This document shows positions 7,998-39,025 of a stretch of 64,000 nucleotides of DNA, piece after piece. The DNA is from Rhizomicrobium sp. Its GTDB lineage: Bacteria > Pseudomonadota > Alphaproteobacteria > Micropepsales > Micropepsaceae. The position numbers and the translations under genes are program-made. The DNA is taken from the NCBI GenBank assembly GCA_037200985.1, contig JBBCGJ010000001.1, positions 4,316,756 through 4,380,755 on the forward strand. The letters are read 5' to 3'. The first letter of the stretch is position 1, and each line of letters starts with the position of its first letter. A model generated the notes under the pieces. That model worked only from the letters and a program-made list of their open reading frames with translations, had not been told where the DNA came from and searched no databases.

Positions 7998-8025
7998 GGA
8001 ACGGGCAGCCGGGGGTGCCCGTTCC
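7998..8025 (+). terminator. hairpin after the tauD-like gene
   Basis: GGAACGGGCA and TGCCCGTTCC form a perfect 10-bp stem with an 8-base loop, starting seven bases after the stop at 7991. There is no T-tract, so it is a terminator-like or mRNA-stabilising hairpin rather than a textbook intrinsic terminator. Confidence 0.55.
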
Positions 8026-10117: not shown

Positions 10118-10142
10118 GGAACCAAGGGTTCCGCATCGCGTT
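10118..10142 (+). promoter_or_regulatory. EcfG (general stress sigma) promoter-like sequence upstream of the giant kinase gene
   Basis: GGAAC, 16 bases, then CGTT matches the consensus of alphaproteobacterial EcfG promoters (GGAAC-N16/17-CGTT). It lies 131 bases before the ATG at 10274 in an intergenic region that otherwise contains no gene. The function is inferred from the motif and position. Confidence 0.55.
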
Positions 10143-10273: not shown

Positions 10274-16585
<6,312 letters not shown>

Positions 16586-20031: not shown

Positions 20032-21111
20032 CTACTTTGCCTTCGTTTTGTGCGGCGCGCGGTTGACAAAAGAGGCATTGCCCAGCCCGGTTCCCAGGGT
20101 GAGCACCCCCCACTGTTTCACATCCGTCATATTCAAGGTCTCGCTCAGGCCCTGCACGACGGCGTCGTTGTGAAGGGCCACCTGCGTATCGTCCTCCCCG
20201 ATGTGCGGTATCGCTTCGGCGATGCGCTGAGGAAGATTGAATCGCGCGCTGGCCCAATTGCCCGGCAGGTTTTGCGTGCCGCGGTCGATCGAACCGTCCG
20301 GCTCGACGATGCCCGGGCAGCCGATGCCGATGAAGGGCGCCAGTCTGAGTTTGGCCTTTTCGGCGCGCCGGATGACGTCGTTGAGCATGTCCACGAGCGA
20401 GCCCACCGCCGCGTCCCGCGTGACGTCGTCCTCGGCGTGGCACCAGATTTCGCGTTCGGCCACGGCGGCGTTGGCAAAGCCCGGCGCTTTCTTCAGGTCG
20501 AACGTCACAAGGCCGACACGCATATTGGTGCCGCCGATATCGACCCCGACAAGGGCATCGTGCCCTTTGAAAACCCATTCCGGCGCGAGCTGGACCGTGC
20601 CCAGGAGGCCGGCATCGTCCGGATCGCTGGCGATGGGCACGATTTCGACGTCGATCTTCTCGGCCTTGAGCAGCGCGGAGAGCCGGCCGATCGCCAACTC
20701 GCCGATGCGGTGACCGCGCATGCCGCCGCCCACGGCGATGCGCTCCACATCCTGCCAACTCTTGTCCTTGAGAAGCCGCCGCACGACGAACGCGAATTCC
20801 TGCGAGAATTCCTCTACGACGGTATGGATCAGGCCCGCGGTCTCGGCATCGCCTTTCTCGAGGGCCTTATCGAGTTCTTTTTTTCCGATCTCGGCGCTCG
20901 GCCGCTCGCCGAACGGATCGCGGCCTTCCTTGATCAGGGGCTTGCGCACCTTGTCGAGAAGTCCCGCCAAGGCTTTCTTGCTCGCGCGGTCGCCGAGGAA
21001 GCCCCCATTGTCCTTGAGTTCGATGTTGTACGAAGCGATGTCGACCTTGGGCAGGCGCAGGCTGCCGTGTCCGCACAACAGAGGCGCCTTCGCGGTTTCG
21101 CCCTCGCTCAT
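20032..21111 (-). CDS. ROK-family sugar kinase with circularly permuted motif order
   Basis: The 359-residue protein contains ROK/glucokinase motifs in unusual order. The usual C-terminal half comes first: IAVGGG at 125-130, DDAGLLG at 165-171. The usual N-terminal half follows: VDIGGTNMRVG from 190, GIGCPG 262-267, catalytic-type HNDA from 314, LGTGLG 339-344. The zinc motif CxCGxxGCxE is absent. ROK kinases phosphorylate glucose or related sugars with ATP; in this cluster glucose would come from MalQ, TreZ or trehalose turnover. Its ATG overlaps the otsB stop by four bases, so the two are translationally coupled. It could be a sugar-binding regulator instead, but no DNA-binding domain is seen. 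Confidence 0.8.
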   Translation of the reverse strand: MSEGETAKAPLLCGHGSLRLPKVDIASYNIELKDNGGFLGDRASKKALAGLLDKVRKPLIKEGRDPFGERPSAEIGKKELDKALEKGDAETAGLIHTVVEEFSQEFAFVVRRLLKDKSWQDVERIAVGGGMRGHRIGELAIGRLSALLKAEKIDVEIVPIASDPDDAGLLGTVQLAPEWVFKGHDALVGVDIGGTNMRVGLVTFDLKKAPGFANAAVAEREIWCHAEDDVTRDAAVGSLVDMLNDVIRRAEKAKLRLAPFIGIGCPGIVEPDGSIDRGTQNLPGNWASARFNLPQRIAEAIPHIGEDDTQVALHNDAVVQGLSETLNMTDVKQWGVLTLGTGLGNASFVNRAPHKTKAK

Positions 21112-21887
21112 GGACCGTCAACGAACGCCGTTGGGCCGAGTTCCTTTTGTCCGTCGATGGAGGGCGCCAGCAATGTGTGCAGCCACCGTCTGAAGTCCGC
21201 CGGGCTGTCGACCCGATAGGCCGCGCCCGGAAAGGTCCGGCCGACCGAGATGCCGATGCCGCCGAGGCTTTCGAGAACCGCGAAGGCGTAGCCGTCGGTC
21301 ACGTCGTCGCCGGCGAACAGCGGTATGCGGCCCAAGAACGGCAGCCTGGCCATGAAGGCACGCAATGCGGAGCCCTTGTCGGTGCCGGCGGGCTTGAGCT
21401 CCAGGACTTTCTTGCCGTGCAGGAGCGAGAAGCCGGCGGCTGTGGCCTCCGCTTCGACTTCGGCGACCCTCGCCGCCGGCAGCGTGGGTTCTTCAAGAAG
21501 GCGATAATGCAGCGCCAGCGTGACCTCCTTGTCCTCGATGAACATGCCGGGCCGATCCGCGAGCGCCGTGAACTTGGCGCGCAATTGCGCCGGAATGGGT
21601 CGCGTGAGGTGTCCGCTCGGCACATCGGGATCGGGCCGGACCTGCGTGCCATGCGCGCCTGCGGCGGGAAGCTTGAGCGGCGCGAACAATTTATCGATGC
21701 CCTCGAGCGTGCGCCCGCTCACGAGCGCCAGCGCCCCGCCGCAGCGCGTTCGAAGCCGCGCAAGATCGTCCACAAGCTCGAGCGGCACGCGGACGGTATC
21801 CGGCGTCAGCGCGATGTCGAGCAACGTGCCGTCGATATCCAGGAACAGCGCAGTGCGATCCAGATCCGGAGCGGGCAGGCAGATCAT
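21108..21887 (-). CDS. otsB: trehalose-6-phosphate phosphatase
   Basis: This 259-residue HAD phosphatase has FLDIDGTLLD (nucleophile and acid aspartates), LVSGRT (motif II), the family's GAHG cap-region element and FAGDDVTDGYAF (motif IV, Mg binding). OtsB removes phosphate from trehalose-6-phosphate, the last step of the OtsAB route. No otsA is in the window, so trehalose-6-phosphate must come from a gene elsewhere. The ATG at 21887 overlaps the stop of the mscS-type gene (ATGA) and its own stop overlaps the ROK kinase start, forming a tight three-gene unit. The same frame is open much further upstream, but that part is the channel gene in another frame. Confidence 0.92.
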   Translation of the reverse strand: MICLPAPDLDRTALFLDIDGTLLDIALTPDTVRVPLELVDDLARLRTRCGGALALVSGRTLEGIDKLFAPLKLPAAGAHGTQVRPDPDVPSGHLTRPIPAQLRAKFTALADRPGMFIEDKEVTLALHYRLLEEPTLPAARVAEVEAEATAAGFSLLHGKKVLELKPAGTDKGSALRAFMARLPFLGRIPLFAGDDVTDGYAFAVLESLGGIGISVGRTFPGAAYRVDSPADFRRWLHTLLAPSIDGQKELGPTAFVDGP

Positions 21888-22987
21888 ATGGTCGCGGCCT
21901 TGCGCTGCTGCCGCGCGTCGATCTCCACGAGGGCCTGCCGCCGCGCGGTCGGGAGCGCCCAGGGGATTTCCTTCTGCAGATAGGCGATCAACTTCTCGCG
22001 CACCTCCGACCGCAAATCGAAGGTCATCGCGGAATTTCCGGCGCTTACCAGCGCGCGCAACTCGATCACATTGTCCCGGGCATCGGTGACCTGCAGGTTG
22101 ACGACCTGTTTGTCCCACAATTTGGATTCCTTGACGATCTCCTCGAGCTTGCGGCGCACCTGATCGACCGGCACGGTATAGTCGGCATAGATCATCACCG
22201 TGCCTATGAGCGAGGCGGAGGTGCGCGTCCAGTTCTGGAACGGCTTGTCGAAGAAATAGCTGAGCGGCACGATCATGCGCCGCCAGTCCCACAGCTTGAG
22301 AACGACATAGGTCGAGGTGATTTCCTCGACCGTCCCGTACTCGCCCTCGACGATAAGGACGTCGTCCAGGCGGATCGGCTGGGAGATGGCGAGCTGGACG
22401 CCCGCCATGAGGTTCTCCAGAACCGGCCGCGCGGCGAGACCCGCCGCGATCCCGGCGATCCCCGCCGATGCGAACAGGCTGACGCCGAACTCGCGCACGG
22501 AGTCGAACGACATCAGCGCGAAGCCGAGCGTGATCACGACCAGAACCGAATCGAGCGCGCGCTTGAGCAGGCGCATCTGGGTCACCGCCTTGCGCGCGAG
22601 AAGATTGTCGGAGACGTCGAGCTTGAAGCGGCCGATATAGCGGTCGATCGCCAGATTGACGCCCACAATTACCAGCCAGCCCAGAAACACGACGAAGGCC
22701 GCCAGCAGCACGCGATTGGCGCCGTCGGCGACAAGCGGACGCAGCGGCGCCACGGACACCGCCATGCTGAAGGCGATCATGATGAAGGCGAAGCGGCTGA
22801 TGCCGCGCGTGCGGCCGATGATGTCGTGCAGGAACGGATAGCGGACGTCGAGGAAGCGCCTGAATACGGCCCATAGCAGGGAATGGACGGCGATTGCTGC
22901 CGCGATCGCCGCAACCAGCAGCGCTAGCACGATCAGGGGTCGCGGCGCCCAGGGAAACATGTCGAGCAGAAGTCTGTTTTCGGTCAT
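21884..22987 (-). CDS. MscS-family mechanosensitive channel
   Basis: The 367-residue membrane protein (from ATG 22987; an ATG at 23011 would add eight residues) has several N-terminal hydrophobic helices. They are followed by the pore-lining and beta-domain signature of Msc[22 protein letters not shown], then [19 protein letters not shown] and [16 protein letters not shown]. Such channels open under membrane tension and release solutes on hypo-osmotic shock. It heads the minus-strand mscS-otsB-ROK unit, so a channel that dumps compatible solutes is encoded with trehalose enzymes. The glgE operon starts divergently within about 130 bases. Confidence 0.88.
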
Positions 22988-23049
22988 CGATCCGCGTTTC
23001 GTTGGTCCCACGCCCAGGCATTAAGCCACAACGCTCCAATGCGTTCCGG

Positions 23050-23075
23050 GGAACTTTTCGCGCTGCAACCACGTT
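23050..23075 (+). promoter_or_regulatory. EcfG promoter-like sequence in front of glgE
   Basis: GGAAC, 17 bases, then CGTT matches the EcfG consensus. It ends 41 bases before the ATG at 23117, an ordinary promoter distance. It also argues against the in-frame start at 23039, which would lie upstream of the promoter. It would place the eight-gene trehalose/glucan run under general stress control. Confidence 0.6.
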
Positions 23076-23116
23076 GCGTTCATGTCGAAATATCTTGCAC
23101 AGTCAGGGCGTTGCCG

Positions 23117-25999
23117 ATGTCGCCACCGCGGATCTGCGATCTGGGAGCAGCCGCAGCAGGTGCGGCCATCGTGGCGCGCGCCAAGGCGTTGCGCTTCGAC
23201 CACCTCGCCGTCGACGGTGTGTCGGCGTTGCCGGGCGAAGGACTCCGGCTGCTGGCCAATGTCGACCTGGCGGAATTTCGATCGGACGATACGCTGGTCG
23301 AAACCCATCCCGATTGGTTTGCCTTTCGTCCGTCGACGGATTCGACCGGCGTGGCCGATCCGCGGCATCATGTCCGGGCGCAGGGACACGCCATCGCGCG
23401 GTTCTACATCGCGTGCGATGGATTCCGTACGCATTGGCATGACCGGCTGGCGCAGCTTGTCGCGCAAGGGGCGTCCGGTTTCAGACTGCGCCGACCGGAC
23501 CGCGTACCCCCGGCACTCCTGCGCGGATTGATCGCCGATCTTCGGTCGCACGCGCCGCGCACGCGCTTCATAGCCGACATTGCGGGACTGGCGCGCGAGG
23601 CGCTCGCCGCGCTCGCTGGTTGCGGTTTCGACTATTGCCTGTCGTCGCTCGCCTGGTGGGATTTCCGCGCCGCCTGGCTGACGGAAGAGTATGAGGCAGC
23701 GTCCCGCGTCGCGCCTGTCCTGGCGCGGGTGGGCGCGGACGGCGTTCCGCCTGGCGAGCGGCGCGCGCGCTATGCCGTTGCCGCAGTCGCCGGCTCCGGC
23801 ATCTGGATGCCGGCGGAGTTCTCGGCCGGCGGCGAAATCGACGGTTGCATCGCTGCGGCGAACGCCCTTGTGGAGTCTGATCCAGTCATCGCCGGTCACG
23901 GCGCGCTGGTCCATCGCGGCAACGCCTTGATCCGGACGGCCGAGTCCGATCAGCGCCTTGCGCGGGACGCAGTGATCGCCGTCGTCAATTCCAGCGACAT
24001 CGTTTGTCCGGCGCCATCTTCGCCTGAAGATTGGGATGTACCTGTGATGACGGCACTGGCGCCGCATGAAGTGTGCCTCCTGCACGCCCGTCGCCGCGAC
24101 CCGATCCGTTCCGAAGTCCCGCAGCTCGATGCCGCAGAACCGCGGATCGTCATCGCGAACGTCTCCCCCGCCGTCGACGACGGGAAATTTGCTGTCAAGC
24201 GCATCGTGGGCGAGACGGTCGCGGTCGAGGCCGACATCTTCGCCGACGGTCATCCGTTGATCGCGGCGGACATTGTCCACGGCGAGCGCCGCGTTCCGAT
24301 GCGACCCATCGGCAATGACCGCTGGCGCGGGACCTTCGTGCTCGACCGAATCGGCCGGCACGCATTTGCGCTGGAGGCGTGGATCGATCGCTATGGCGGC
24401 TTTGCACGCGATCTGGCCAGGAAACAGGAGGCCGGCCACGATATCGCGCTCGATATCCGCGAGGGCGACGCGATGGTCCGCGAGGTCCTTGGCCTGCCCG
24501 CTAGCGATTCCGCCATTTTGCTCGCCCCAGAGACCATCGAAGCGATGCATCGCCTGGAGGAGCGGAAATTCCTCGTCCGTAGTCCCGCTTACCCGATCGA
24601 TGCCGACCGGTCGGGCGCGGGCTTCGCAAGCTGGTACGAGTTGTTTCCGCGTTCACAGACCGACGATCCCACTCGGCACGGCACGTTCCGCGCCGTGATC
24701 GCGCGCTTGCCTGTGATCCGAGCTATGGGCTTCGACGTTCTTTACATGCCTCCGATCCATCCGATCGGCCGGACGAACCGCAAGGGCCGCAACAACGCCT
24801 TGACCGCCGCGCCCGGCGACCCGGGCAGCGTCTACGCCATCGGCTCGGCAGAAGGCGGCCACGATGCGATTCATCCAGAACTCGGCACGTTCGACGATTT
24901 CCGCGCCCTGATCGCAGCAGCGCGTGCGGAGGGTCTGGAGATCGCGCTCGATTTCGCCGTGCAATGCTCTCCCGACCATCCCTGGCTCAAGGAGCATCCC
25001 GGCTGGTTTGACTGGCGCGCCGACGGTTCGATCAAGTACGCCGAAAATCCGCCCAAGCTTTACGAAGACATTGTCAATGTCGATTTCTATGCCCAGGACG
25101 CGATTCCCGGGCTTTGGAACGCGTTGCGCGACATTGTCCGGTTCTGGGCAAACGAAGGCGTACGCATCTTCCGCGTCGACAATCCGCACACCAAGCCGTT
25201 CGCGTTCTGGCAATGGCTGATCGCGAGCGTGCGCGCTAGCGACCCAGACATCATTTTCCTTGCAGAAGCCTTCACGCGGCCGAAGGTCATGGCGCATCTC
25301 GCCAAGATCGGCTTCACTCAATCCTATACCTACTTCACCTGGCGCAACACCAAGGACGAGCTCACGGACTATCTGGGCGAGCTGAACGAACCGCCCGCCC
25401 GCGATTTCTTCCGGCCGCATTTCTTCGTCAACACGCCGGACATCAATCCGTATTTCCTGCAGACTTCCGGTCGGCCGGGATTTCTTATCCGCGCCGCGCT
25501 GGCGGCGACGCTGTCGGGACTGTGGGGCATTTATTCCGGATTCGAACTATGCGAGGCGGCGGCGCTGCCGGGCCGCGAGGAGTACCGCGACTCGGAAAAA
25601 TATCAGATCAGGCCGCGCGACTGGAACGCGCCGGGTAACATCGCCGCCGAGATCGCGACGCTCAATCGGTTGCGCAAGGCCCATTCTGCACTGCAGACTC
25701 ATCTCGGCGTCACGTTCTACAACGCGTTCAATCCGAACGTGCTTTATTACGGCAAGCATGTTGCCGGGGAGACGAGCCGTATCCTGGTCGCCGTAAATCT
25801 CGACCCGCACGGGCCGCAGGAATGCGATTTCGAAATTCCGCTCTGGGAATGGGGGCTGCCGGATAGCGGCGCGCTGTTCGTCGAAGACCTGCTCGACGGC
25901 CATCACTTCGTCTGGCACGGCAAGATTCAGCATCTGCGCCTGGAACCGGATGCGCCTTACCGTCTCTGGCGCGTCTGCCCGGCGGAGGACCAGCGATGA
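23117..25999 (+). CDS. glgE: alpha-1,4-glucan:maltose-1-phosphate maltosyltransferase with an N-terminal amylase-like extension
   Basis: GlgE (GH13_3) transfers maltose from maltose-1-phosphate to the non-reducing end of alpha-glucan. The C-terminal two thirds show the family hallmarks: [25 protein letters not shown] (nucleophile Asp codon at 25178), [12 protein letters not shown] (acid Glu codon at 25265) and [12 protein letters not shown]. The protein is about 960 residues, against roughly 660-700 for actinobacterial GlgE. The extra N-terminal 330 residues look like a degenerate TIM barrel ([31 protein letters not shown]) lacking an obvious catalytic triad. The ATG at 23117 is chosen because an EcfG-like promoter lies between it and the earlier start at 23039. 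Its stop overlaps treS by four bases. Confidence 0.93.
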
Positions 26000-28900
26000 A
26001 TGTCCGCGAAGACGTCCATCTTCCGCGCGCCGACGAGACGATCCAGCACGAGCGCGCGCATGATCCCCTCTGGTACAAGGACGCTGTCATCTATCAGCTC
26101 CACGTCAAGTCGTTCGCCGACGCGAACAATGACGGCGTCGGCGATTTCGCGGGCCTGATCGGCAAGCTCGACTATCTGGCCGAGCTCGGCGTCACCGCGA
26201 TCTGGCTCCTGCCGTTCTATCCTTCTCCCCGGCGCGACGACGGCTACGACATCGCGGATTATCGCGGCGTTCATCCCGATTACGGTTCGATTGAAGACGT
26301 GCGCCGCTTTATCGAGCTGGCGCATGCGAAGGGTATGCGCATCATCACCGAGCTCGTGCTGAACCACACCTCCGATCAGCACCCCTGGTTCCAGCGCGCG
26401 CGCAAGGCGCCGCCAGGTTCACCCGACCGCGACTTCTACGTCTGGTCCGACACCGACAAGCGCTATGCCGGTACGCGCATCATTTTCCTCGATACCGAGA
26501 AGTCGAACTGGACCTGGGATGAGGAGGCGCAGGCCTATTACTGGCACCGTTTCTACGCGCACCAGCCCGACCTCAATTTCGACAATCCGGCGGTCATGGA
26601 GGAGGCGCTGTCGGTGATGCGCTTCTGGCTCGACATGGGCGTCGACGGCCTGCGCCTCGATGCCGTGCCCTATCTGGTCGAGCGCGAAGGCACCAACAAC
26701 GAGAACCTGCCGGAGACGCACGCCGTCCTGAAGCGCTTCCGCGCGGAAATCGACGCGCATTATCCCGGCCGCATGCTGCTCGCCGAGGCCAACCAGTGGC
26801 CGGAGGACGTGCAGGCATATTTCGGCGACGGCGACGAGTGCCACATGCTGTTCCATTTTCCCCTGATGCCGCGCATGTACATGGCGATCGCACAGGAGGA
26901 CCGCTTCCCCATCATGGACATCATGCGCCAGACGCCGGACGCACCGCCGAACTGCCAATGGGCGACGTTCCTGCGCAATCACGACGAACTGACGCTGGAG
27001 ATGGTCACCGACAAGGAGCGCGACTATCTCTGGAAGACCTATGCCGCCGACAAGCGGGCGCGTCTCAATCTCGGTATCCGGCGCCGGCTCGCGCCGTTGC
27101 TCGAACATGACCGCCGGCGCATCGAGCTGATGAACTCGCTGCTGCTCACCATCATGGGCACGCCTATCCTCTATTACGGCGACGAGATCGGCATGGGCGA
27201 CAACATCCATCTGGGCGACCGGGACGGCGTGCGCACGCCGATGCAATGGAGCCCGGACCGCAATGGCGGCTTCAGCCGCGCCGATCCGGCGTCGCTGGTG
27301 CTGCCGGCGATCATGAACCCGCTCTACGGGTTTGAAGCCGTCAATGTCGAGGCTCAATGGCGCAGCCCCTATTCGCTGCTCAACTGGGTGCGCCGCATGC
27401 TGGTGGTGCGCGGCCGCTGGAAGGCGTTCGGGCGCGGCACGATCCGTTTCCTCCGGCCGCAGAACCGCAAGGTCCTCGTCTATCTGCGCGAATTCGATGG
27501 CGAGGTCGTGCTTTGCGTCGCCAATGTCTCGCGCACGGCCCAGGCCGTCGAGCTGGACCTGAGCGAGTTCGCCGGCCGTACGCCGGTCGAGCTGTCGGGC
27601 GAGGTCGCGTTTCCGAAGATCGGGCAGCTCACCTATCTGCTCACGCTTCAGCCCTTTGGATTCTATTGGTTCGCGCTGAGCGCGGAGACCAGCCAGCCGG
27701 CCTGGAGCACCGCCACCGCCGATAACATCGCGGAGTACCACACCTTCATCATCCGGGCCGGCTTGAACGACATCATCGATGGGCGGCAGCGGAACGTCCT
27801 GGAGAAGGAGGTGCTGCCGGGATATGTCGCGCAACGGCGCTGGTATCAGGCCAAGAGCACCGGCGTGCCCGCGGTGCGGATCGCGGACACGCAAGACTTT
27901 GACAAGGAGCTCCTGTTCGGCGTCCTCGAGGTGAACGGCGAGCACTACGCGCTGCCGCTCGCGATCGCATGGGAGGACGCGCCGTCGCATCCGTTCGAAG
28001 CGGCGCTCGCCCTGGCGCGCGTCCGGCGCGGCGCACGGATCGGGCTTCTGACCGACGGCTTCGCCACGGCCAAGTTCGCGCGGGCCTTGTTGCGCGGGCT
28101 TGCCGAGGGCTGTGGGCCGGGCGCTTTGACCTGCAGCCGCGCGCCGGCCTTTGCCGGCATCGCGCCGGACGCGGAGATCGAGTGGCCGGGCGCCGAGCAG
28201 AGCAACTCGACGTTGATCGTCGGCCGCCGCGCCGTGATCAAGCTGTTTCGTCGCCTGGTCGACGGTATCCATCCAGAGGCAGAGATGGTGCGCGCGTTGA
28301 CGGAGCGCGGCTTCACCGGCATCGCAGCGCTTATGGGCGAGGTACGCTATAAGAGTGCCGCGGCCGCGGTGGTGCAGCGCTTCGTCGAGAACCAGGGCGA
28401 TGCGTTCCAATGGTCGCTGGAGCAGGTCGGCCGCCTGATCGACGACAAGGCGGTGACCGATGGCGAGAACGGCAACGACCTCGAAGCCTACCGCAATTTC
28501 ATCGCGGTTGTCGGCCGCCGGCTGGGCGAAATGCACACCATACTGGCGCAGCCCTCGGACGATCCCGATTTCATGCCGCAGAAGGCGACCGCCGAGACGA
28601 TAGCGTCCTGGCGCGCGCGCCTGGGCGCACAGCTCGATGCCGCCTTCGCATTGCGCGATCTCGGCGATCGCGCCGCGCTCGACGCTGCGGCGGGCAAGGC
28701 CTTGTCCGCGGGGGAGGGGCTGCTCCTCACGCGAATCCACGGCGACCTGCATCTCGGGCAAGTGCTGGTGGCGGCGGGCGACGCGATCATCATCGACTTC
28801 GAGGGCGAGCCGGCCAAGCCGCTCGCCGAGCGCCGCGCGAAGAATTCTCCGCTGCGGGATGTGGCCGGCATGTTGCGCTCGTTCGACTATGTCGGCGGCG

Positions 28901-29172
28901 TTGTGGAGCGCAACGACCGGCTGGTGAACACCAGCCAGAGCGCCGACCGTGCCAGGACGCTGCTCGCGGAGTTCGGCCGTGTCGCGCGCGGCGCGTTCCT
29001 GGATGGTTACGCGAAAGGCCGCGGTCGGCCGCTGGACGCGCGCGAGGAAAAGCTCCTTGCCGTCTTCACGCTCGAAAAGGCCGCCTATGAGATCGTCTAC
29101 GAGGCCAACAACCGCCCGGACTGGATCGACCTTCCCACCGCGGGTTTTTCCGGACTGGCGGCGGCGCTATGA
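25996..29172 (+). CDS. treS: trehalose synthase-maltokinase fusion
   Basis: The 1058-residue protein joins two enzymes. Residues about 15-560 are TreS (GH13_16), which isomerises trehalose and maltose: [53 protein letters not shown]. From about 590 to the end is maltokinase (Pep2/Mak), with [11 protein letters not shown], the kinase loop [12 protein letters not shown] and IIDFEGEP, which phosphorylates maltose to maltose-1-phosphate, the GlgE donor. Fusion of the two channels trehalose into the GlgE route and is known in several proteobacteria. Both ends overlap neighbours by four bases. Confidence 0.95.
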
Positions 29173-31289
29173 ACATGCAGGACACCAACGAGGCCGCCCA
29201 AGCGCAGATGGTGGCACAAGGCCGCCATCCCGATCCTTTCGCGTTCCTCGGACCCCACAATGGCATCGTCCGCACATTCCAACCCGCCGCGCAGCGCGTC
29301 GACCTCCTGCTTGGCGCGAACGCGGTGTCGCTGACGGCCATCGGCAACACCGGCGTGTTCGTCGGGCGCGGCGAGCCGCCCTACAGACTCCGCATCCATT
29401 GGCGCGACACGGTTCAGGAAACCGAGGACCCTTATGCGTTCGCGCCGATCCTGGGCGACGTCGACCTGCATCTTTTCTCCGAAGGCGCGCATTGGAATCT
29501 CGCCGGGCGCTTCGGCGCATCGGTCGACCGCATCGAGGACATCGCGGGCGTGCGCTTCGCGGTATGGGCGCCGAATGCGCGGCGCGTCTCGGTGGTCGGC
29601 GATTTCAACGGTTGGGATGGCCGGCGCCATCCGATGCGGCTGCGCCACGACGCCGGCGTGTGGGAGATTTTCATCCCGCGGCTTATGGCGGGCGAACGCT
29701 ACAAATACGAAATCGTCGGTCCGGACGGCACGCTGCTCCCGCTCAAGGCCGATCCTTTGGCGCGCGCGACCGAACATCCGCCCGCGAATGCCTCCGTCGT
29801 CCCCGAGCCCTGGCGTTTCCATTGGACCGACGGCGACTGGATGGCCGGGCGCGCCAAGGCCCAGGCGCCGGACGCGCCGATCTCGATCTATGAGGTCCAC
29901 GCCGCGTCCTGGCTGCGCCCCGAGCACGGCGAGACGATGGATTGGCGCGGTTTGGCCGAGCACCTTATCCCCTATGTCGGCGCGCTCGGCTTCACCCATG
30001 TCGAGCTGCTGCCGATCATGGAGCACCCGTTCGGCGGCTCCTGGGGCTACCAGCCCCTGTCGCAATTCGCGCCCAGCGCGCGCTACGGCACGGCGGAAGC
30101 CTTCGCCGGCTTCGTCGACGCATGCCACCGCGCCGGCATCGGCGTGATCCTGGACTGGGTGCCGGCGCATTTCCCCTCAGACGCGCATGGCCTCGCGCAT
30201 TTCGACGGCACGGCGCTCTACGAGCATGCCGATCCGCGCGAAGGGCTCCACAAGGATTGGAACACGCTCATCTACAATCTCGGCCGCCGCGAGGTACAAG
30301 GCTTCCTGATCGCCAGCGGGCTGTTCTGGCTGGAGCACTTCCATATCGACGGCCTGCGCGTCGACGCCGTGGCGTCGATGCTTTATCGCGATTATTCGCG
30401 CAACGCCGGCGAGTGGATTCCCAACCGCTATGGTGGCCGCGAGAACCTCGAAGCGGTCGACTTTCTCAAGCGCCTGAACGGCTTGGCGCGCGAGCGTCAT
30501 CCGGGCGCGATCACCATCGCCGAGGAATCGACGGCCTGGCCGGGCGTGACCGCGCCGGAAGGCCTGGGATTTTCCTACAAATGGAACATGGGCTGGATGC
30601 ACGACACGCTGTCCTATCTCTCTTACGAGCCGGTGCATCGCCGCTGGCATCATAACGACATGACCTTCGGTCTCGTCTACGCCTGGTCGGAGCGCTTCGT
30701 CCTGCCGCTGTCCCATGACGAGGTTGTTCACGGCAAGGGTTCGCTCTATGCCCGCATGCCGGGCGACGCCTGGCAGAAGCTCGCGACCCTGCGCGCCTAT
30801 TTCGCCTTCCTGTGGACCCATCCGGGACGCAAGCTGCTTTTCATGGGCGGCGAGCTCGCAATCCCGCGCGAATGGGACCACGACGGCGAGATCGACTGGG
30901 ATTTGCTCAAGGATCATGGGCATGCCGGCGTCCAGCAGCTTGTCGGCGACCTGAACCGGCTCTATGCGCGCGAGCCCGCCCTGCACGCCCTGGACGACGA
31001 TCCGAGCGGCTTCCGCTGGGCGATCGGCGACGACAGCGCGAACAGCGTCTTCGCTTACGAGCGCGTCGCGCCCGACGGACGCTCGCTTCTCGTGGTCGTC
31101 AACATGACGCCGGTGCCGCGCTGCGGCTATCGCGTTCCGGTGTCGCGCGATGGCGCCTGGCACGAGTTGCTCAACACGGATTCGCAAATCTATGGCGGCG
31201 GCAATATCGGCAATGGCGGGCAGGCCGAAGCCCGCGATGGCGCGTTGATACTTACCCTGCCGCCGCTTGCAACATTGGTTCTTGGATGA
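29169..31289 (+). CDS. glgB: 1,4-alpha-glucan branching enzyme
   Basis: This 706-residue protein has an N-terminal beta-sandwich (CBM48 type: [20 protein letters not shown] near 130) and a GH13_9 barrel. The motifs are [12 protein letters not shown] (nucleophile), [13 protein letters not shown] (acid) and [14 protein letters not shown], and length is close to E. coli GlgB (728). It cuts alpha-1,4 chains and rejoins them as alpha-1,6 branches, which the GlgE route needs to make branched glucan. It is embedded in the run of four-base overlaps between treS and glgX. Confidence 0.96.
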
Positions 31290-33337
31290 AATTGGAAGCT
31301 GGACTGCCTTACCCGCTCGGCGCCACGCATGACGGAAATGGCGTGAACTTCGCCGTCTTCTCGGCGCACGCATCGGTGGTCGAGCTTTGCGTCTTCGATC
31401 GCGACGGTCATGAAGAGCGTGTAGCGCTGCCCCGCCGCATCGACGAGGTCTGGCACGGCTATCTTGCCGGCGCTGCGCCGGGACTCGTCTATGGCTACCG
31501 CGTCCATGGTCCTTACGCGCCCGAAGACGGCCACCGCTTCAATCCAAACAAGCTGCTCCTCGATCCCTACGCCAAGGCGATTTCGGGCGCGGTGAAATGG
31601 GACGATGCACTGCTAGGCTACACGCCCGGGGGCGAAGACGCCGATCTTACTTTCGACAAACGCGACAGCGCGGCCTTCATGCCCAAGGCCGTGGTGACGA
31701 AGGACACGTTCGACTGGGGCGACGACCGTCCGCCGCGCGTCGGTTGGGCTGATACGGTGATCTACGAAGCCCATGTCAAGGGCATGACCAAGCTGCTTGG
31801 CGCCGTGCCGAATGATATCCGCGGGACATATGCGGCGCTGGGAAGTGCGTCGGTGATCGATCATCTGCGCCGGATCGGCATCACGGCGGTCGAACTCCTG
31901 CCCGTGCACGCTTTCGCGCAGGATCGCGGGCTGGTCGAAAAGGGCCTGAGCAATTACTGGGGTTACAACACGCTCTCCTTCTTCACGCCGGAGCCGCGCT
32001 ACGGCACGGCGGACGAATTGCGCGCCGCGATCCGCGCGCTGCACAAGGCCGGCATCGAGGTCATCCTCGACGTCGTCTACAACCACACCTGCGAAGGCAG
32101 CGAGCTCGGCCCGACGCTGTCGTGGCGCGGGTTCGATCATGCGAGCTACTACCGCCTGCCCGACGACGACCGCCGCCATACGGTGAACGACACCGGCACC
32201 GGCAACACCGTCAATATGTCCCACGCCCGCGTGCTGCAGATGGCGATGGACTCGCTGCGCTATTTCACGCAGTCGTTGCATGTCGACGGCTTCCGCTTCG
32301 ATCTCGGCGCGACGCTCGGCCGCGAGCGTTCCGGCTTCGACCCCGACAGCGGCTTTTTCGACGCGCTCCGCCAGGATCCGGTGCTCGCCCGCGTCAAGCT
32401 GATCTCCGAGCCGTGGGACATCGGACCCGGCGGCTATCAGCTCGGCAACCATCCGCCCGGCTTCTCCGAATGGAACGACCGATATCGCGACACAGTGCGT
32501 CGGTACTGGCGCGGCGATGCCGGCCAGCGCCCGGAGCTGGCGGAGCGGCTGTCCGGCTCCTCCGATCTTTTTTCGCTGCGCCGCCCGTCCGCCTCGATCA
32601 ACTACATCGCCAGCCATGACGGTGCGACGCTGGCCGATCTCACCCTGTACGAAGGCAAGCATAACGAGGCCAATGGCGAGGAGAACCGCGACGGCATATC
32701 GGACAACCTCGCGCGCAATTGGGGCGTGGAAGGGCCGAGCGACGACATGAAGATCGGCGCGATGCGCGCGCGCATGCGCCGTTCCCTGCTTGCCACGCTG
32801 TTCTGGGCGCGCGGCGTGCCGATGCTGCTGGCCGGCGACGAGTTCGGCCGCACGCAGAAGGGCAACAACAACGCCTATTGCCAGGACAACGAGATCTCCT
32901 GGCTCGACTGGTCCGCGGCCGACGATACGCTGATCGCCTGGACGGCGCGGCTGACGGCGCTGCGCTGCGAATTCGCCGGCCTGCACGAGGACAGGTTTCG
33001 GCACGGACAGGAGGTCGTTCAGGGTTTTCGCGATCTTGATTGGCTGGACGAGCGCGGTGAAATCCTCTCTGACAAGGATTGGCAGAACGCGGAAGGCCGC
33101 GCGTTGGCCATGCGCCGCACGTCGCGTCGCGCCGACGGAAAGGTCGAAATCATCGCACTGCTGATGAACAGTGCCGAGGATGCGCTCGATTTCGCGCTGC
33201 CCGGAGCGCCGGATTGGCGGCTGATCTTCGACAGCGCGGCCCCCGAACGAAAGCCCGGCGCGCTCGGCGGAACGTCCTGCAAGGTTGAAAGCCACGCCTG
33301 CGTGATGGTTGCCGCTCTCCTGAAGGCACCGGCATGA
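31286..33337 (+). CDS. glgX: glycogen debranching enzyme (isoamylase type)
   Basis: The 683-residue GH13_11 enzyme starts at the ATG at 31286, which overlaps the glgB stop (ATGA) and gives the typical GlgX N-terminus ([20 protein letters not shown]). Catalytic motifs are [28 protein letters not shown] and [14 protein letters not shown], and the GlgX signature [18 protein letters not shown] is present. It hydrolyses alpha-1,6 branches of limit dextrins, releasing maltooligosaccharides that TreY, MalQ and GlgP can use. The same frame is open upstream inside glgB, but that part resembles nothing. Confidence 0.95.
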
Positions 33338-34941
33338 CACATTTCCGGCTCTGGGCGCCGGCCCACCCGCGCGTCGATCTCGAGCTGAGCGGCAGGATCG
33401 TGCCGATGCGACCGGCGTCGGACGGCTGGCATGCGGCCGACGTGCCGGCGCCCGCGGGCGCACGCTACCGCTTCCGGATCGGCGACGTTGCGGTGCCCGA
33501 TCCGGCGTCGCGCCGGCAGGACGATGAATGGTCCGTCGTCACCGACCCGGACGCCTATCGCTGGCAGGATGCCGCCTGGCGCGGCCGCCCCTGGGAGGAG
33601 ACCGTCCTGTACGAGCTTCATGCCGGCCTAATGGGCGGGTTCGAGGGTATCGAGGATCGCCTGCCGGCGCTCGCTGAGCTCGGCGTCACCGCGGTCGAGC
33701 TGATGCCGATCGCGCAGTTTCCGGGCAACCGCAATTGGGGCTACGACGGCGCGCTGCCTTACGCGCCCGCGGCGGTCTACGGCACGCCGGACGATCTGAA
33801 GCGTCTGGTCGACCGGGCCCATGGCCTCGAGCTGATGGTGTTCCTCGACGTCGTCTACAACCACTTCGGGCCGGACGGCAATTATTTGCCGCTCTACGCG
33901 CCGGGCTTCTTCCGCGAAGATCGTCACACGCCCTGGGGCGCCGGCATTGATTTCCGCAAGGAGCAGGTGCGGCGCTTCTTCATCGACAATGCGCTGTACT
34001 GGGTACGCGAGTTTCACATCGACGGTCTTCGGCTCGACGCTGTGCATGCCATCGGCGATGACGGGTTCGTCGCCGATCTGGCGCATGCGGTGCGCGACGG
34101 CGCGGCCGGACGGCAGGTGCATCTCGTGATCGAGAACGAGCACAACGATGCCAGGCTCCTGGCCGAAGGCGGGTTCGCGCAATGGAATGACGATTTCCAT
34201 CACGCCGTCCATGTGCTGCTGACCGGCGAAAGCGAGGGCTACTATGGCCCCTATGCGGACGCGCCCGCGCGAGGCTTGGCGACCTCGCTCGCCGGCGGGT
34301 TCATCTGCGACCGCAGCGGGCCGGGTCCGCGGCTTTCCCCCACCGCTTTCGTGAATTTCCTGCAGAACCACGACCATGTCGGCAACCGTGCCTTCGGCGA
34401 GCGCCTGACGGTGCTGGCGGACGAGACGGCGCTGCAAGCCGCCATCGGCCTGCTCCTGCTCGCTCCGCCGATCCCGCTGATCTTTTTCGGTGAGGAGGCG
34501 GGTGCGCGCGAATCGTTCCTCTACTTCTGCGACCATGCCGATGACAAGCTCGCGGACGCCGTGCGCGAAGGCCGCCGCAACGAGTTCGCCAAATTTTCCG
34601 AATTCCGCGATCCCGCGCAGCGCGCGCGGATTCCGGATCCCAACGCGCCGGAGACCTTCGCGCGCTCGCGCCCGCGCCTCGACGGCGGCGCCGAATGGCG
34701 GGCTCTTTATAAGGAGCTATTGGCTCTGCGCCGCGCGCATATCGTGCCGCGGCTCAAGGACTGCATTGCGGAAGGCGCGGACGTCGTAGGGCCGAAGGCC
34801 GTGCTTGCGTCCTGGCGCCTGGGCGACGGCACGCGCCTGACCATCCTGGCCAATCTCGGCCGCGAAGACGTGTCCTGTTCGCTTCCGGAGGCTACGCCCA
34901 TCTGGGATCGCGCCGGGACCCGTTGCTGGATCGAGACATGA
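33334..34941 (+). CDS. treZ: malto-oligosyltrehalose trehalohydrolase
   Basis: TreZ (GH13_10) releases trehalose from maltooligosyltrehalose made by TreY. This 535-residue copy has a short N-terminal CBM48-like domain (about 1-85), then [50 protein letters not shown] and LQNHDHVGNRAFGERL, which are TreZ-type motifs. It is slightly shorter than many TreZ proteins. It overlaps glgX and malQ by four bases each. Confidence 0.94.
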   Translation: MTHFRLWAPAHPRVDLELSGRIVPMRPASDGWHAADVPAPAGARYRFRIGDVAVPDPASRRQDDEWSVVTDPDAYRWQDAAWRGRPWEETVLYELHAGLMGGFEGIEDRLPALAELGVTAVELMPIAQFPGNRNWGYDGALPYAPAAVYGTPDDLKRLVDRAHGLELMVFLDVVYNHFGPDGNYLPLYAPGFFREDRHTPWGAGIDFRKEQVRRFFIDNALYWVREFHIDGLRLDAVHAIGDDGFVADLAHAVRDGAAGRQVHLVIENEHNDARLLAEGGFAQWNDDFHHAVHVLLTGESEGYYGPYADAPARGLATSLAGGFICDRSGPGPRLSPTAFVNFLQNHDHVGNRAFGERLTVLADETALQAAIGLLLLAPPIPLIFFGEEAGARESFLYFCDHADDKLADAVREGRRNEFAKFSEFRDPAQRARIPDPNAPETFARSRPRLDGGAEWRALYKELLALRRAHIVPRLKDCIAEGADVVGPKAVLASWRLGDGTRLTILANLGREDVSCSLPEATPIWDRAGTRCWIET

Positions 34942-36623
34942 TGAGCGAGGCCGCCCTGTATGACCGCGCGCGCAAGGCCGGCCTTGCGCCGGATTGGATT
35001 GATGCGGCGGGGCATTCCAAGACCGTCTCTCCCGATACGTTACGTGCGGTACTCGCTGCCTTGAGCGGCTACGAAGCCGGCGAGGCGCAGGCGGGCGAGA
35101 TCGGAACGTGTTTTTCGGTCGGCGAAGCCGCGCCGGGGCGACGCGTGGCCGGCCTGGCCGTCCAGCTTTATGCCCTTCGTGGCAGCGACGGTTTCGGCGA
35201 TCTCGGCGCGCTGTCGCGGTTTGCCTGCGAGGCAGCGCCGCTCGGTATCGATGCGATTGCGGTCAGCCCGATCCATGCGCCGTTTCTGGCCGCCGTGGAC
35301 GAGATCAGTCCTTACGCGCCGTCGAGCCGCCTGTTTCTCAACCCGCTCTATGCGACGGAAGACGTGCCTGACGACGGGCGCGACGGCCTTGTCGATTGGC
35401 CGGCAGCGTCGCGCGCCAAGCTCGCAAGGCTGCGCGCGGCTCACGCGCAGGCGCCGCTCACGCCAGCGGACGGCCGGCTTCGCGACCACGCGCGGTTCGA
35501 CGCGCTCGACGCACATTTCCGCGATCAGCGTCTCTATCGCTGGCAGGACTGGCCGGTTGCCTATCGCGATCCGCGCAGCGACGCGGTTGAGGCGTTCGCG
35601 CGCGATCACCAGAATGAAATAGACTTCTACGTCTTCCTGCAAAGACGGACCGACGACAGCTTGGCCGCGGCGCAGGCGGCGGCGCGCGATGCCGGCATGG
35701 CGATCGGCCTGATCGCCGACATCGCCGTGGGCATGAGTCCGCATGGCAGCCACGCCTGGAGCGCGCCGGACGATGTGTTGCGCGGGCTCACCGTCGGCGC
35801 GCCGCCCGACATCTTCAATCCGCAAGGGCAGAGCTGGGGCCTCACCGCACTGTCGCCGGCGGCGCCGCGCGCGGCTTTCGTCGACACCTGGGACGCCGCG
35901 ATGCGCCATGCCGGCGGCGTCAGGATCGATCACGCAATGGGGCTCTACCGTCTCTGGGTGATTCCGGACGGCGCGGGTTCGCAGGACGGCGTCTATCTGC
36001 ATTATCCGATGCGGGCGCTGATGGGGCTGCTCGCCGAACGGTCCCGGCACCATCGCGCCATCGTCATCGGTGAAGACCTGGGAACGGTGCCCGAAGGTTT
36101 TCGTGAAGCGATGCGCTGCGCCGGCATGCTCGGCATGGAGGTGCTCTGGTTCCAGCGCGACGGCCGGCACTTCCGTCCTTCGGAACGCTGGTCGGCGCGC
36201 GCCGCGGCGCTCACCACGACACACGATCTTCCCACCGTCGCGGGCTGGTGGCGCGGCCGCGACATCGATTGGTTGGAGAAGCTCGGTCGCAAATCCGAGT
36301 ATGGCGACATCGCGGCCGAGCGCTGGGCGCGGGGCGAGGATCGTTCGCATCTGTGGTCGGCGATCGGCCACGGTTCGGAACCTTCGCCGGAGGACGCAGG
36401 CCGGATCGTCGAGGCCGCCCTGGCCTTCGTCGGTCGTACGCCCTGCGAGATCGCGATTGTGCCCGTCGAGGACGTGTTGGGCTTGGTCGAGCAGCCCAAC
36501 ATCCCCGGCACCATCGACGAGCACCCCAATTGGCGCCGGCGCCTGCCGCCGAGCGACGCTTTCGCAAGTCCCGCTGCGCGCACCCATCTCGCGGCGCTCA
36601 CGCGCGAACGGTCGCGCTCATGA
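34938..36623 (+). CDS. malQ: 4-alpha-glucanotransferase (amylomaltase)
   Basis: The 561-residue GH77 enzyme shows VQLYALRGSDGFGDLGAL, GGVRIDHAMGLYRLWVIP (nucleophile), VIGEDLGTVPEGF (acid) and TTTHDLPTVAGWWRG. Amylomaltase transfers glucan segments between maltooligosaccharides and releases glucose. The ATG at 34938 is chosen because it gives the ATGA overlap with treZ; an adjacent ATG at 34941 would remove one residue. Glucose it frees is a possible substrate for the ROK kinase across the cluster. Confidence 0.93.
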   Translation: MMSEAALYDRARKAGLAPDWIDAAGHSKTVSPDTLRAVLAALSGYEAGEAQAGEIGTCFSVGEAAPGRRVAGLAVQLYALRGSDGFGDLGALSRFACEAAPLGIDAIAVSPIHAPFLAAVDEISPYAPSSRLFLNPLYATEDVPDDGRDGLVDWPAASRAKLARLRAAHAQAPLTPADGRLRDHARFDALDAHFRDQRLYRWQDWPVAYRDPRSDAVEAFARDHQNEIDFYVFLQRRTDDSLAAAQAAARDAGMAIGLIADIAVGMSPHGSHAWSAPDDVLRGLTVGAPPDIFNPQGQSWGLTALSPAAPRAAFVDTWDAAMRHAGGVRIDHAMGLYRLWVIPDGAGSQDGVYLHYPMRALMGLLAERSRHHRAIVIGEDLGTVPEGFREAMRCAGMLGMEVLWFQRDGRHFRPSERWSARAAALTTTHDLPTVAGWWRGRDIDWLEKLGRKSEYGDIAAERWARGEDRSHLWSAIGHGSEPSPEDAGRIVEAALAFVGRTPCEIAIVPVEDVLGLVEQPNIPGTIDEHPNWRRRLPPSDAFASPAARTHLAALTRERSRS

Positions 36624-39025
36624 CGCCGCGCGCCACCTATCGCATGCAATTCCACAAGGGCTTCACCTTCGCGGACGCGGCGGCGCTCGCGCCCTATCTG
36701 GCCTCGTTGGGCATCAGCCATCTCTATTCCTCGCCGATTCTCGCCGCGCGCGCCGGCTCGACGCACGGCTACGACGTGATCGACCACGCGCGCGTCAACC
36801 CGGAGCTCGGTGCCGAGGATGGATTCCGCGCGCTGGCGGCGGCCCTGCGGGCGCACGAGATCGGCATCGTGCTCGATATCGTGCCGAATCATATGGCGGT
36901 CGGCGGCGCCGACAATCCCTGCTGGCTCGACCTTCTAGAGAAGGGTCGCGACAGCGTCTTCGCCAACATGTTCGACATCGACTGGGAACCGGCGCAACCC
37001 AATCTGCGCGACAAGGTGCTGGTGCCGCTCCTGGGCGCAAAGCCGCGCGACGTGATCGCAGCAGGCGAAATCTCGCTCATCAAGGACGAACGCCTCGGCA
37101 AATACGCCTTCGCCTATGGCGAGCATCGTTTTCCGCTGCGCAAGGAGGATTATGAAGAGGTCGAAACCGATCTCGCCGCGGCCAACAAGCCCGAGCGGCT
37201 GGGCGCCCTGCTTGAACGGCAGAACTTCCGTCTCGCCTTCTGGCGCGACGCCGGCGAGCGCATCAACTGGCGGCGCTTCTTCGACATCACCGAGCTCGCG
37301 GCGTTGCGTGTCGAAGACGACGGCGTGTTCGAGATTATCCACGGCACCGTTTTCCGGCTCTATGCCGAGGGCCTGATCGACGGCGTGCGCGTCGACCACG
37401 TCGACGGCCTCGCCGATCCCAAGGCCTATTGCCAGCGCCTGCGCGCGCGCCTCGAAGCGCTCAACGCGCAGCGCGAGCGCAAGGATGCGCCTTATATCGT
37501 GGTCGAGAAGATACTAGCCTCGAACGAAACCCTGCCCGAGGACTGGGGAATCGACGGCACGACGGGCTACGATTTCATGGACCAGGTCTCGGCGCTGCAG
37601 CATGACGATGCGAATGCCGCGCGCTTCGGGGCGCTATGGGCCGAGATCAGCGGACGTTCGCCCGACTTCGCGCCGGAGGAACGCGCCGCGCGCCGCGAGG
37701 TGATGGAGAACGCCTTTGCCAACCAGCTGCGCGCTACGGCCGCGGCCTTCCAGGCGTTCGCGCCCGATACCGGCCGAGGCGATTTCGAAACCGCGCTCGC
37801 ATGTCTGCTGGAAAGTTTCCACGCCTATCGCACCTATGCCGGCACGCCCAGCCCGTCCTTCGATGCCGCTTACGAAGATGCGCGGCCTGTGGCGCCGCGG
37901 CGCGCGCTCGATGCGATCGCGCGGGCCCTGCGCTCGGGCGACGAGGCAGCGCGCGACGCGGCGCGGCGTTTCAACCAGCTCGCCGCGCCGGTGGCGGCCA
38001 AGGCCGTCGAGGACACCGCCTTCTATCGCTACGGCCGGCTGCTCTCGCGCAACGATGTCGGTTTCGCGCCGGATTGTTTCGGGTGGTCTCCGGAGATCTT
38101 CCTCGCCAAAGCGCAGGAACGCCAGCGGGCGTTTCCGAGGGCGATGCTCGCGACGGCGACTCACGACCACAAGCGCGGCGAGGACGTGCGCGCGCGACTG
38201 GCGGCGCTCAGCGAGATTCCCGACATGTGGGAGAACGAGGCGCGCGCCTGGTTCGCGATGAACGCAGCCCTGCGACCGCCGAAGGTGATGCCGGGCGACG
38301 AATACCAGCTCTATCAGACGCTCGTCGGCGCATGGCCTATCGAGGCCGGTCGCGTGCTCGCTTGGCGCGAGAAGTCCTTGCGCGAAGCCAAGCTCGAGAC
38401 CTCATGGTTCGCGCCCGATGCAGCGTTCGAAGAGCAGAACGCCGCGTTCGTGCGGGCTATCCTCGATCCCGGCCACGGCTTCACCCAAAGGATCGATGGC
38501 TTCGTCGCCAAGCTTGCGCCGGCGGGCATCTGCAACAGCCTGGTGCAATGCGCGCTGCGCTATACGTTGCCGGGCGTCCCCGATCTTTACCAAGGCTCCG
38601 AGCTTTGGGATTTCAGCCTGGTCGATCCCGACAACCGCCGGCCCGTCGACTACGGGCTGCGCAACGAGATGCTGCCCCGTACGATGTCGTTGGACGGCTG
38701 GAAATCCGGCGCTTCGAAGCTGGCCTTGATCCGACGGCTGCTGGCATTGCGCAAGGAACGGCCGGATGCGTTCGAAGCGGACATCGAGCCCGTGCCGGCA
38801 CCCAGCCGCGTCTTGGCGTTTCGACGCGGCCCGCTCCTTGTGGCCGTTCCGCTTCTGTCGGCGCAAGCCTGCATGGAACGCGGCATCCCGTTGCCGGCGG
38901 CGTCCGGCGCCCTTCGGGCCGAAGGACGCTGGCACAACGCGCTCGATTCCGCCCTGCCACGCGTGGGCGCGCTCGATTGCGCCGAACTGTTCTCCGACTT
39001 CCCCGTCGCGGTGCTGGTGGCGTGA
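36620..39025 (+). CDS. treY: maltooligosyl trehalose synthase
   Basis: TreY (GH13_26) converts the reducing end of maltooligosaccharides to a trehalosyl unit. The 801-residue protein begins TYRMQFHKGFTFADA, with LGISHLYSSPI, DIVPNHMAVG, DGVRVDHVDGLADP (nucleophile), IVVEKILASNETLPEDW (acid), TTGYDFMDQV, ATATHDHKRGEDVRARLA and VPDLYQGSELWDFSLVDPDN, all characteristic of the family. It overlaps malQ (ATGA) and the DUF72 gene (GTGA). Confidence 0.95.
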   Translation: MTPRATYRMQFHKGFTFADAAALAPYLASLGISHLYSSPILAARAGSTHGYDVIDHARVNPELGAEDGFRALAAALRAHEIGIVLDIVPNHMAVGGADNPCWLDLLEKGRDSVFANMFDIDWEPAQPNLRDKVLVPLLGAKPRDVIAAGEISLIKDERLGKYAFAYGEHRFPLRKEDYEEVETDLAAANKPERLGALLERQNFRLAFWRDAGERINWRRFFDITELAALRVEDDGVFEIIHGTVFRLYAEGLIDGVRVDHVDGLADPKAYCQRLRARLEALNAQRERKDAPYIVVEKILASNETLPEDWGIDGTTGYDFMDQVSALQHDDANAARFGALWAEISGRSPDFAPEERAARREVMENAFANQLRATAAAFQAFAPDTGRGDFETALACLLESFHAYRTYAGTPSPSFDAAYEDARPVAPRRALDAIARALRSGDEAARDAARRFNQLAAPVAAKAVEDTAFYRYGRLLSRNDVGFAPDCFGWSPEIFLAKAQERQRAFPRAMLATATHDHKRGEDVRARLAALSEIPDMWENEARAWFAMNAALRPPKVMPGDEYQLYQTLVGAWPIEAGRVLAWREKSLREAKLETSWFAPDAAFEEQNAAFVRAILDPGHGFTQRIDGFVAKLAPAGICNSLVQCALRYTLPGVPDLYQGSELWDFSLVDPDNRRPVDYGLRNEMLPRTMSLDGWKSGASKLALIRRLLALRKERPDAFEADIEPVPAPSRVLAFRRGPLLVAVPLLSAQACMERGIPLPAASGALRAEGRWHNALDSALPRVGALDCAELFSDFPVAVLVA

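What the first reader, a model, noticed from the sequence alone, without database searches (positions are those of the whole stretch)
20032..21111. ROK kinase with circularly permuted order of motifs
In ROK kinases the order is DIGGT, catalytic Asp, GTGxG, then a GGG-containing C-terminal half. Here IAVGGG (125-130) and DDAGLLG come first, followed by VDIGGTN (190 on), HNDA and LGTGLG at the end. The CxCGxxGCxE zinc motif is missing. This is what a circular permutation of the two lobes would give.
Basis: partly seen in the sequence, partly recalled or inferred. Interest (0 to 1): 0.72.

Follow-up and report, generated by a model that had tools for sequence, protein, structure and literature searches.

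The report
Circularly permuted ROK-type sugar kinase
A stress-linked bacterial gene next to trehalose-making genes encodes a sugar-kinase-like enzyme whose usual chain order has been cut inside one half and rejoined at the old ends, a shuffled arrangement that is conserved across many bacteria and that I found described in no paper.

Summary
The minus-strand ORF 20032-21111 (359 aa) has IAVGGG at 125-130, then VDIGGTN at 190, HND at 314 and GTGLG at 340, with no zinc motif. The order is conserved: all 37 aligned family members (relatives 45-82% identical, including non-alphaproteobacteria) share it. Profile-profile tests show a circular permutation, not a fusion or duplication. As it stands, only DIGGT-to-GTG aligns with ordinary ROK kinases (score 58.8); rotated near residue 181, one alignment covers the ROK profile end to end (94.2). 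The N-terminal half alone matches the ROK C-terminal lobe (48.7; shuffled at most 18.6). The break lies inside lobe 2, between the GTGxG hairpin and the ExGH strand; ExGH and the zinc knuckle are gone, replaced by about 72 residues of no detectable ancestry. The tree gives one origin on a long stem. Fourteen of 37 genes carry an EcfG (general stress response) promoter motif 33-78 nt upstream, against 4 of 382 neighbouring genes; otsB adjoins it in several lineages. Best reading: a catalytically competent, permuted, zinc-less ROK-derived hexose kinase used in stress and trehalose turnover. Fold and substrate are unproven; AlphaFold2 with two sequences failed.

The parts
20032..21111 (-). permuted ROK-type kinase CDS (359 aa, stop included)
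20896..21111 (-). residues 1-72: new N-terminal segment with HGxxxLPxVxVDxYN...GFxGDRAS; stands where ordinary ROK has ExGH and the zinc knuckle; no detectable homology
   Evidence: conservation; no match above shuffles
20578..20895 (-). residues 73-178: homologous to ROK positions about 202-300 (C-terminal part of lobe 2 plus terminal helix)
20722..20730 (-). GGG (128-130), adenosine-side glycine motif, invariant
20554..20577 (-). residues 179-186: linker joining the ancestral C-terminus to the ancestral N-terminus
   Evidence: optimal rotation lies near residue 181
20056..20553 (-). residues 187-352: homologous to ROK positions about 4-148 (lobe 1 and the first hairpin of lobe 2)
20527..20541 (-). 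DIGGT (191-195), phosphate-1 loop
20164..20172 (-). HND (314-316), predicted catalytic Asp316, invariant
20080..20094 (-). GTGLG (340-344), phosphate-2 loop, invariant
21120..21144 (-). EcfG-type promoter motif GGAAC-N16-CGTT, 33 nt upstream of the start codon, inside the 3' end of otsB
21108..21887 (-). otsB trehalose-phosphatase; its stop codon overlaps the kinase start (ATGA)
   Evidence: start codon read
21884..23011 (-). MscS-like mechanosensitive channel, first gene of the apparent three-gene operon (named from its sequence, not from a family search)
   Evidence: homologue in the same place in L001 and L074
18476..19915 (-). glgA glycogen/starch synthase, downstream on the same strand
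23050..23075 (+). second EcfG-type motif, upstream of the divergent glgE-treS-glgB-glgX-treZ-malQ-treY run

Best explanation
The gene encodes a circularly permuted, zinc-less phosphotransferase of the actin-like fold, descended from a ROK sugar kinase. The ancestral termini were joined by a short linker (about residues 179-186), and new termini were opened inside lobe 2, between the GTGxG hairpin and the strand that normally carries ExGH. SHOWN at sequence level: the permutation, its conservation, its single origin, and retention of phosphate-1 (DIGGT), catalytic ND, phosphate-2 (GTGLG) and adenosine-side GGG. INFERRED: the chain refolds to the normal ROK shape, binds ATP (or polyphosphate) and a hexose in the cleft, Asp316 activates the sugar 6-OH, and the product is a hexose 6-phosphate, most likely glucose 6-phosphate. 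INFERRED from promoter motifs and neighbours: it is made in the EcfG general stress response and helps trehalose/glycogen turnover by recapturing free hexose.
For: Rotated profile aligns end to end with ordinary ROKs (290 columns, score 94.2, E 1.3e-12) against 58.8 unrotated; the score peaks for a cut near residue 181. The N-half alone matches ROK 202-300 (score 48.7, E 1.6e-6; 40 column shuffles at most 18.6, reversed 19.1; repeated). Repeated with a separate tool run on A3 and A4. Catalytic motifs invariant in 37 family members. One clade, support 100/100. The rotated model found only permuted genes, each matched in two halves that join at the same point, in 190 genomes. EcfG motif 14/37 against 4/382; NepR in the host genome. 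otsB adjacent in the window, L001, Rhizobium L041, Shinella L042 and L091; full trehalose/glycogen cluster. Literature: GGAAC-N16-CGTT is the R. etli EcfG1 motif (PMC3892343); trehalose synthesis is EcfG-controlled in Bradyrhizobium (PMC8092242).
Against: ExGH, the sugar-contact motif of ROK, is absent, so sugar binding must be rebuilt, perhaps by the unrecognised first 72 residues. The AlphaFold2 model is unusable (pLDDT 47.5, pTM 0.44) and its fold hits are only generic actin-like folds at TM about 0.2. The host already has an ordinary Glk and an ordinary ROK, so a second glucokinase is not obviously needed. In most other genomes the neighbours are unrelated to trehalose. The EcfG motif is missing in 23 of 37, including all the chromosomal Bradyrhizobium-like copies tested.
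Confidence: 0.72

Rival explanations
1. The permuted protein keeps the nucleotide site but phosphorylates something other than glucose (another sugar, a disaccharide such as trehalose or maltose, or a non-sugar), or uses polyphosphate as donor.
For: ExGH is gone and about 72 new residues stand in its place. Unusual invariant residues (QNLPGNW 280-286, H314, W223, R232) are not ROK consensus. The DIGGT-GTG part is closer to PPGK-like proteins (E 1.2e-15; tree 92/68).
Against: Neighbourhood with otsB, treS and glgA points to glucose-type sugars. The PPGK model is far below cut-off (19.4 against 250 bits), and tree support for the PPGK side is weak.
Confidence: 0.4
2. It is a non-catalytic sensor or regulator derived from a ROK kinase (as Mlc/NagC-type ROK repressors are), reading sugar or nucleotide levels under stress.
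For: Some ROK proteins are repressors; loss of ExGH and zinc could mean loss of catalysis (zinc matters for Mlc, PMC5458393).
Against: No DNA-binding domain was found by Pfam. The catalytic Asp and all phosphate loops are invariant across 37 diverse members, which suggests catalysis is under selection.
Confidence: 0.13
3. Two incomplete pieces from different families fused by chance, or a tandem duplication with lost ends, rather than a true circular permutation.
For: The first 72 residues have no detectable ROK ancestry. Duplication followed by trimming is a usual route to a permutant, so a duplicated intermediate may once have existed.
Against: Residues 73-178 match the ROK C-lobe specifically and no motif is repeated. 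Together the two halves make one complete ROK apart from the ExGH/zinc stretch.
Confidence: 0.05

Closest known systems
ROK family sugar kinases (Pfam PF00480; e.g. the ordinary ROK of the same genome at G000:C1:1099939)
   Same: DxGxT, GxxxPG, catalytic ND, GTGxG, GGG motifs; full-length profile homology after rotation
   Different: motif order permuted; ExGH and CxCGxxGCx(E/D) absent; about 72 unrecognised residues at the cut site
Polyphosphate/ATP glucokinases (PPGK; PDB 1woq; alphaproteobacterial PPGK-like L100-L102)
   Same: zinc-less; NDAxxQGL and TLGTGLGxA motifs resemble the permuted family; best profile score for the DIGGT-GTG part; nearest group in the tree, weakly supported
   Different: not permuted; keep an E/DLAH or ELGH motif; C-terminal part does not align with residues 73-178; NCBIfam PPGK cut-off far from met (19.4 of 250 bits)
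Zinc-less N-acetylmannosamine kinase of Fusobacterium nucleatum (PMC5458393)
   Same: ROK kinase without zinc site that keeps the other catalytic features; its original N- and C-termini lie in the same domain
   Different: normal order, keeps ExGH
Glucokinase Glk (PF02685)
   Same: actin-like hexose kinase; possibly the same reaction
   Different: no significant match (E 0.17; 11.3 against 22.1 bits); an ordinary Glk is encoded separately in this genome

Membership tests
ROK family (motif definition as in PMC5458393) | DxGxT nucleotide/phosphate motif | tested here: met
   D191-T195; D191, G193, G194 invariant in 37 sequences
ROK family (motif definition as in PMC5458393) | strictly conserved catalytic Asp in the ND loop | tested here: met
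   N315-D316 invariant
ROK family (motif definition as in PMC5458393) | ExGH sugar-contact motif | tested here: not met
   no ExGH in the protein; the region at that place has no detectable match to it
ROK family (motif definition as in PMC5458393) | CxCGxxGCx(E/D) zinc motif | tested here: not met
   three Cys only, none in such a motif; zinc-less ROKs exist (PMC5458393, PMC6406325)
ROK family (Pfam PF00480) | score above the curated cut-off | tested here: met
   39.3 against 22.9 bits, but over profile 2-145 of 294 only; 29 of 30 members match at E 0.01
ROK family (Pfam PF00480) | co-linear, full-length domain | tested here: not met
   only half aligns as it stands; full length aligns after rotation in profile-profile comparison
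Polyphosphate glucokinase (NF045942) | curated score cut-off | tested here: not met
   19.4 against 250 bits
Polyphosphate glucokinase (NF045942) | polyphosphate as phosphoryl donor | not testable with these tools
   needs enzyme assay
ROK glucokinase (TIGR00744) | curated score cut-off | tested here: not met
   24.1 against 260.35 bits
Glk glucokinase (PF02685) | curated score cut-off | tested here: not met
   11.3 against 22.1 bits
ROK fold (two-lobed actin-like kinase) | same three-dimensional fold with moved termini | tested here: inconclusive
   AlphaFold2 from 2 sequences: pLDDT 47.5, pTM 0.44; only generic actin-like hits
EcfG general stress response regulon | GGAAC-N16/17-CGTT promoter motif upstream | tested here: met
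   window site 33 nt upstream; 14 of 37 family members against 4 of 382 other genes
EcfG general stress response regulon | transcription lost in an ecfG mutant | not testable with these tools
   needs expression data

The most novel reading that the evidence does not exclude
This is the first recognised natural circular permutant among actin-fold sugar kinases: an ancient, single-origin family in Pseudomonadota, cut inside the catalytic second lobe, that rebuilt its sugar site without ExGH or zinc and was recruited to the alphaproteobacterial general stress response, with a substrate or donor unlike canonical ROKs.
Probability: 0.35. Interest if true: 0.75.

Novelty: new variant of a known kind. 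Interest (0 to 1): 0.6.

Why it matters
Natural circular permutants of enzymes are uncommon, and I found none reported for ROK kinases (open-access papers only). This one is conserved in many rhizobia and other bacteria, where it is annotated simply as 'ROK family protein' or 'glucokinase', although only half of it fits the model and the sugar-contact and zinc motifs are missing. It offers a direct test of whether the actin-like kinase fold tolerates new ends inside a lobe, and it adds a probable enzyme to the general stress response that rhizobia need for trehalose-based stress tolerance and symbiosis.

Tried and rejected
I tried to enrich that alignment with ROK pieces from viral contigs, but the aligner put DIGGT and GTG fragments in the wrong places, so no second job was run. 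Simple rotation did not lengthen the Pfam hit, nor did an HMM of the rotated family reach the ROK C-lobe in PDB sequences; only profile-profile comparison shows the second half. By eye, GFLGDRAS resembles GCxExxxS of ordinary ROKs and YVGDRTR of PPGK-like proteins; this is not above shuffles and is not claimed. A duplicated or unpermuted intermediate was sought and not found. The long open frames around L010, L013 and L034 read as frames of neighbouring DNA, not fusions. Viral contigs hold no relative.

Full report
WHAT IS THERE. The ORF lies on the minus strand, 20032-21111, 359 aa. Pfam ROK matches residues 188-354 against profile 2-145 of 294 (39.3 bits, cut-off 22.9); the first 182 residues match no Pfam family on their own.

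IT IS A FAMILY, NOT AN ODDITY. Full-length relatives with the same order were found in a MAG (82%, L001), in the same genus (L003, L004, L006), in 16 of 385 sampled genomes of the class (the window's own included; two further weak matches are partial), in about 22 of 398 of the phylum, including genomes outside the class (the remaining 15 weak matches are partial, at E-values of about 1e-6 to 1e-3), in 12 of 13 genomes of one genus outside the class, and on 204 of 206 matching plasmid records, nearly all Rhizobium and Sinorhizobium. In 37 aligned sequences 56 residues are invariant: GGG 128-130, D191, G193, G194, N315, D316, G340-G344, most of the block Q280-W286, and F38/G40/D41 near the new N-terminus. 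Some genomes hold two copies (G610, G594).

IT IS A CIRCULAR PERMUTATION. I compared the family profile with 31 ordinary alphaproteobacterial ROKs (hhalign). As it stands: 139 columns, score 58.8, ROK 5-148 only. Rotated at 183/184: 290 columns, ROK 5-300 of 307, score 94.2, E 1.3e-12. The N-half alone hits ROK 202-300 (score 48.7, E 1.6e-6); the C-half alone hits ROK 4-147 (58.3). Controls: 40 column shuffles of the N-half score at most 18.6, reversed 19.1; among the cut points tried the score peaks for a cut before residue 181 (94.3; 94.2 at 184) and falls away on both sides. The result repeats with a smaller, separately aligned set (rotated 88.1; unrotated 63.7). Neither half carries a repeated motif, so a tandem duplicate or a two-family fusion is disfavoured.

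WHERE THE CUT IS. The protein ends just after GTGLGNA-F-NR, and residues 73-178 pick up at ROK position 202. In ordinary ROKs the part between (about 149-201) holds ExGH and the CxCGxxGC zinc knuckle. Here that place is filled by residues 1-72, which are conserved within the family (HG..LP.V..D.YN.EL...GF.GDRAS) but match neither ordinary ROK nor PPGK profiles above shuffles. In the F. nucleatum kinase, domain 1 is made of residues 1-118 plus 272 to the C-terminus (PMC5458393), so the ancestral ends lie in one domain and joining them is plausible; the new ends lie inside the other domain. The statement 'permutation of the two lobes' is therefore refined: the cut is within lobe 2.

ORIGIN. A tree of the DIGGT-GTG part (64 rows) puts all permuted proteins in one clade (100/100) on a long stem (2.63 changes per site), nearer the zinc-less PPGK-like proteins than the ordinary alphaproteobacterial ROKs, but weakly (92/68). 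The DIGGT-GTG profile also scores best against PPGK-like proteins (103.8, E 1.2e-15), whereas residues 73-178 resemble only ordinary ROKs. The rotated model found no co-linear sister in 190 genomes: every hit is a permuted gene matched in two halves that join at model position about 168-173.

SURROUNDINGS. In the window the gene is third in an apparent operon (MscS-like channel, otsB, kinase) with stop/start overlaps (ATGA), followed by glgA. Divergently run glgE, treS-maltokinase, glgB, glgX, treZ, malQ, treY, and beyond them glgP on the other strand (glgE is named from its length, place and homology, since no NCBIfam model for it rang). otsB is also next to the kinase in L001, Rhizobium (L041), Shinella (L042) and G645 (L091); in S. 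meliloti it lies beside osmoprotectant (NAGGN) genes; elsewhere the neighbours vary.

REGULATION. A GGAAC-N15-18-[CG]GTT motif sits 33-78 nt before the start in 14 of 37 family members, against 4 of 382 other genes in the same regions (Fisher p 3e-13, not corrected for kinship; one of the four is a glgE homologue). This is the EcfG consensus (GGAAC-N16-CGTT in R. etli, PMC3892343). The three aligned members from outside the class (L036-L038) lack it, as expected for a sigma factor confined to Alphaproteobacteria. The host genome encodes NepR. Trehalose synthesis is known to be EcfG-controlled in Bradyrhizobium (PMC8092242). In the window itself the motif is inside the 3' end of otsB, so it could be a chance match there (5 sites in 64 kb against 2 expected); the family-wide enrichment is the stronger evidence.

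MECHANISM. Retention of phosphate-1, phosphate-2, adenosine-side and catalytic Asp motifs argues for an active phosphotransferase (inference from established ROK/ASKHA chemistry). With ExGH gone, the sugar pocket must use other residues; invariant N281, W286, H314 and the N-terminal segment are candidates (inference). Glucose is the simplest acceptor given the trehalose/glycogen setting, but the host has another glucokinase, so I give glucose specificity only modest weight (about 0.35), some hexose kinase activity about 0.7, and the permutation itself about 0.93.

LIMITS. No usable structure: AlphaFold2 with two sequences gave pLDDT 47.5; its Foldseek hits are hexokinase, ParM and DnaK at TM about 0.2, compatible with an actin-like fold but not proof. 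The literature search covered open-access papers only; none describes a permuted ROK. Phyla other than Pseudomonadota were sampled only through the plasmid, viral and species-genome collections, the last by a scan that reaches close relatives only.

Noticed in passing
10274-16585 (+): A 2103-aa hybrid histidine kinase with a long run of near-identical HAMP-type repeats followed by GAF-like, kinase and receiver regions (read from the sequence); an EcfG-type motif lies at 10118-10142 just upstream.
   Followed up: no
23039-42316: Near-complete trehalose/glycogen island: glgE, treS-maltokinase, glgB, glgX, treZ, malQ, treY on + and glgP on -; the true glgE start is probably near 23117, downstream of the EcfG-type motif at 23050-23075.
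   Followed up: partly
7998-8025: Overlapping EcfG-like motifs on both strands (a near-palindromic GGAACGGGC...GCCCGTT); could be a hairpin rather than promoters.
   Followed up: no
L100, L101, L102: Alphaproteobacterial zinc-less PPGK-like ROK proteins well under the NCBIfam polyphosphate glucokinase cut-off (107-121 against 250 bits), with an E/DLAH motif in place of ExGH.
   Followed up: partly
L133, L134, L136: Short ROK proteins (about 225-245 aa) encoded directly after zwf on plasmids of Deinococcus, Pantoea and Agrobacterium, with ELAH/EIAH in place of ExGH: a likely glucokinase-zwf pair.
   Followed up: no
L088 (G594:C151): A second short fragment (matching residues 5-44 of the permuted kinase) lies about 4 kb from a full copy, perhaps a decayed duplicate.
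   Followed up: no
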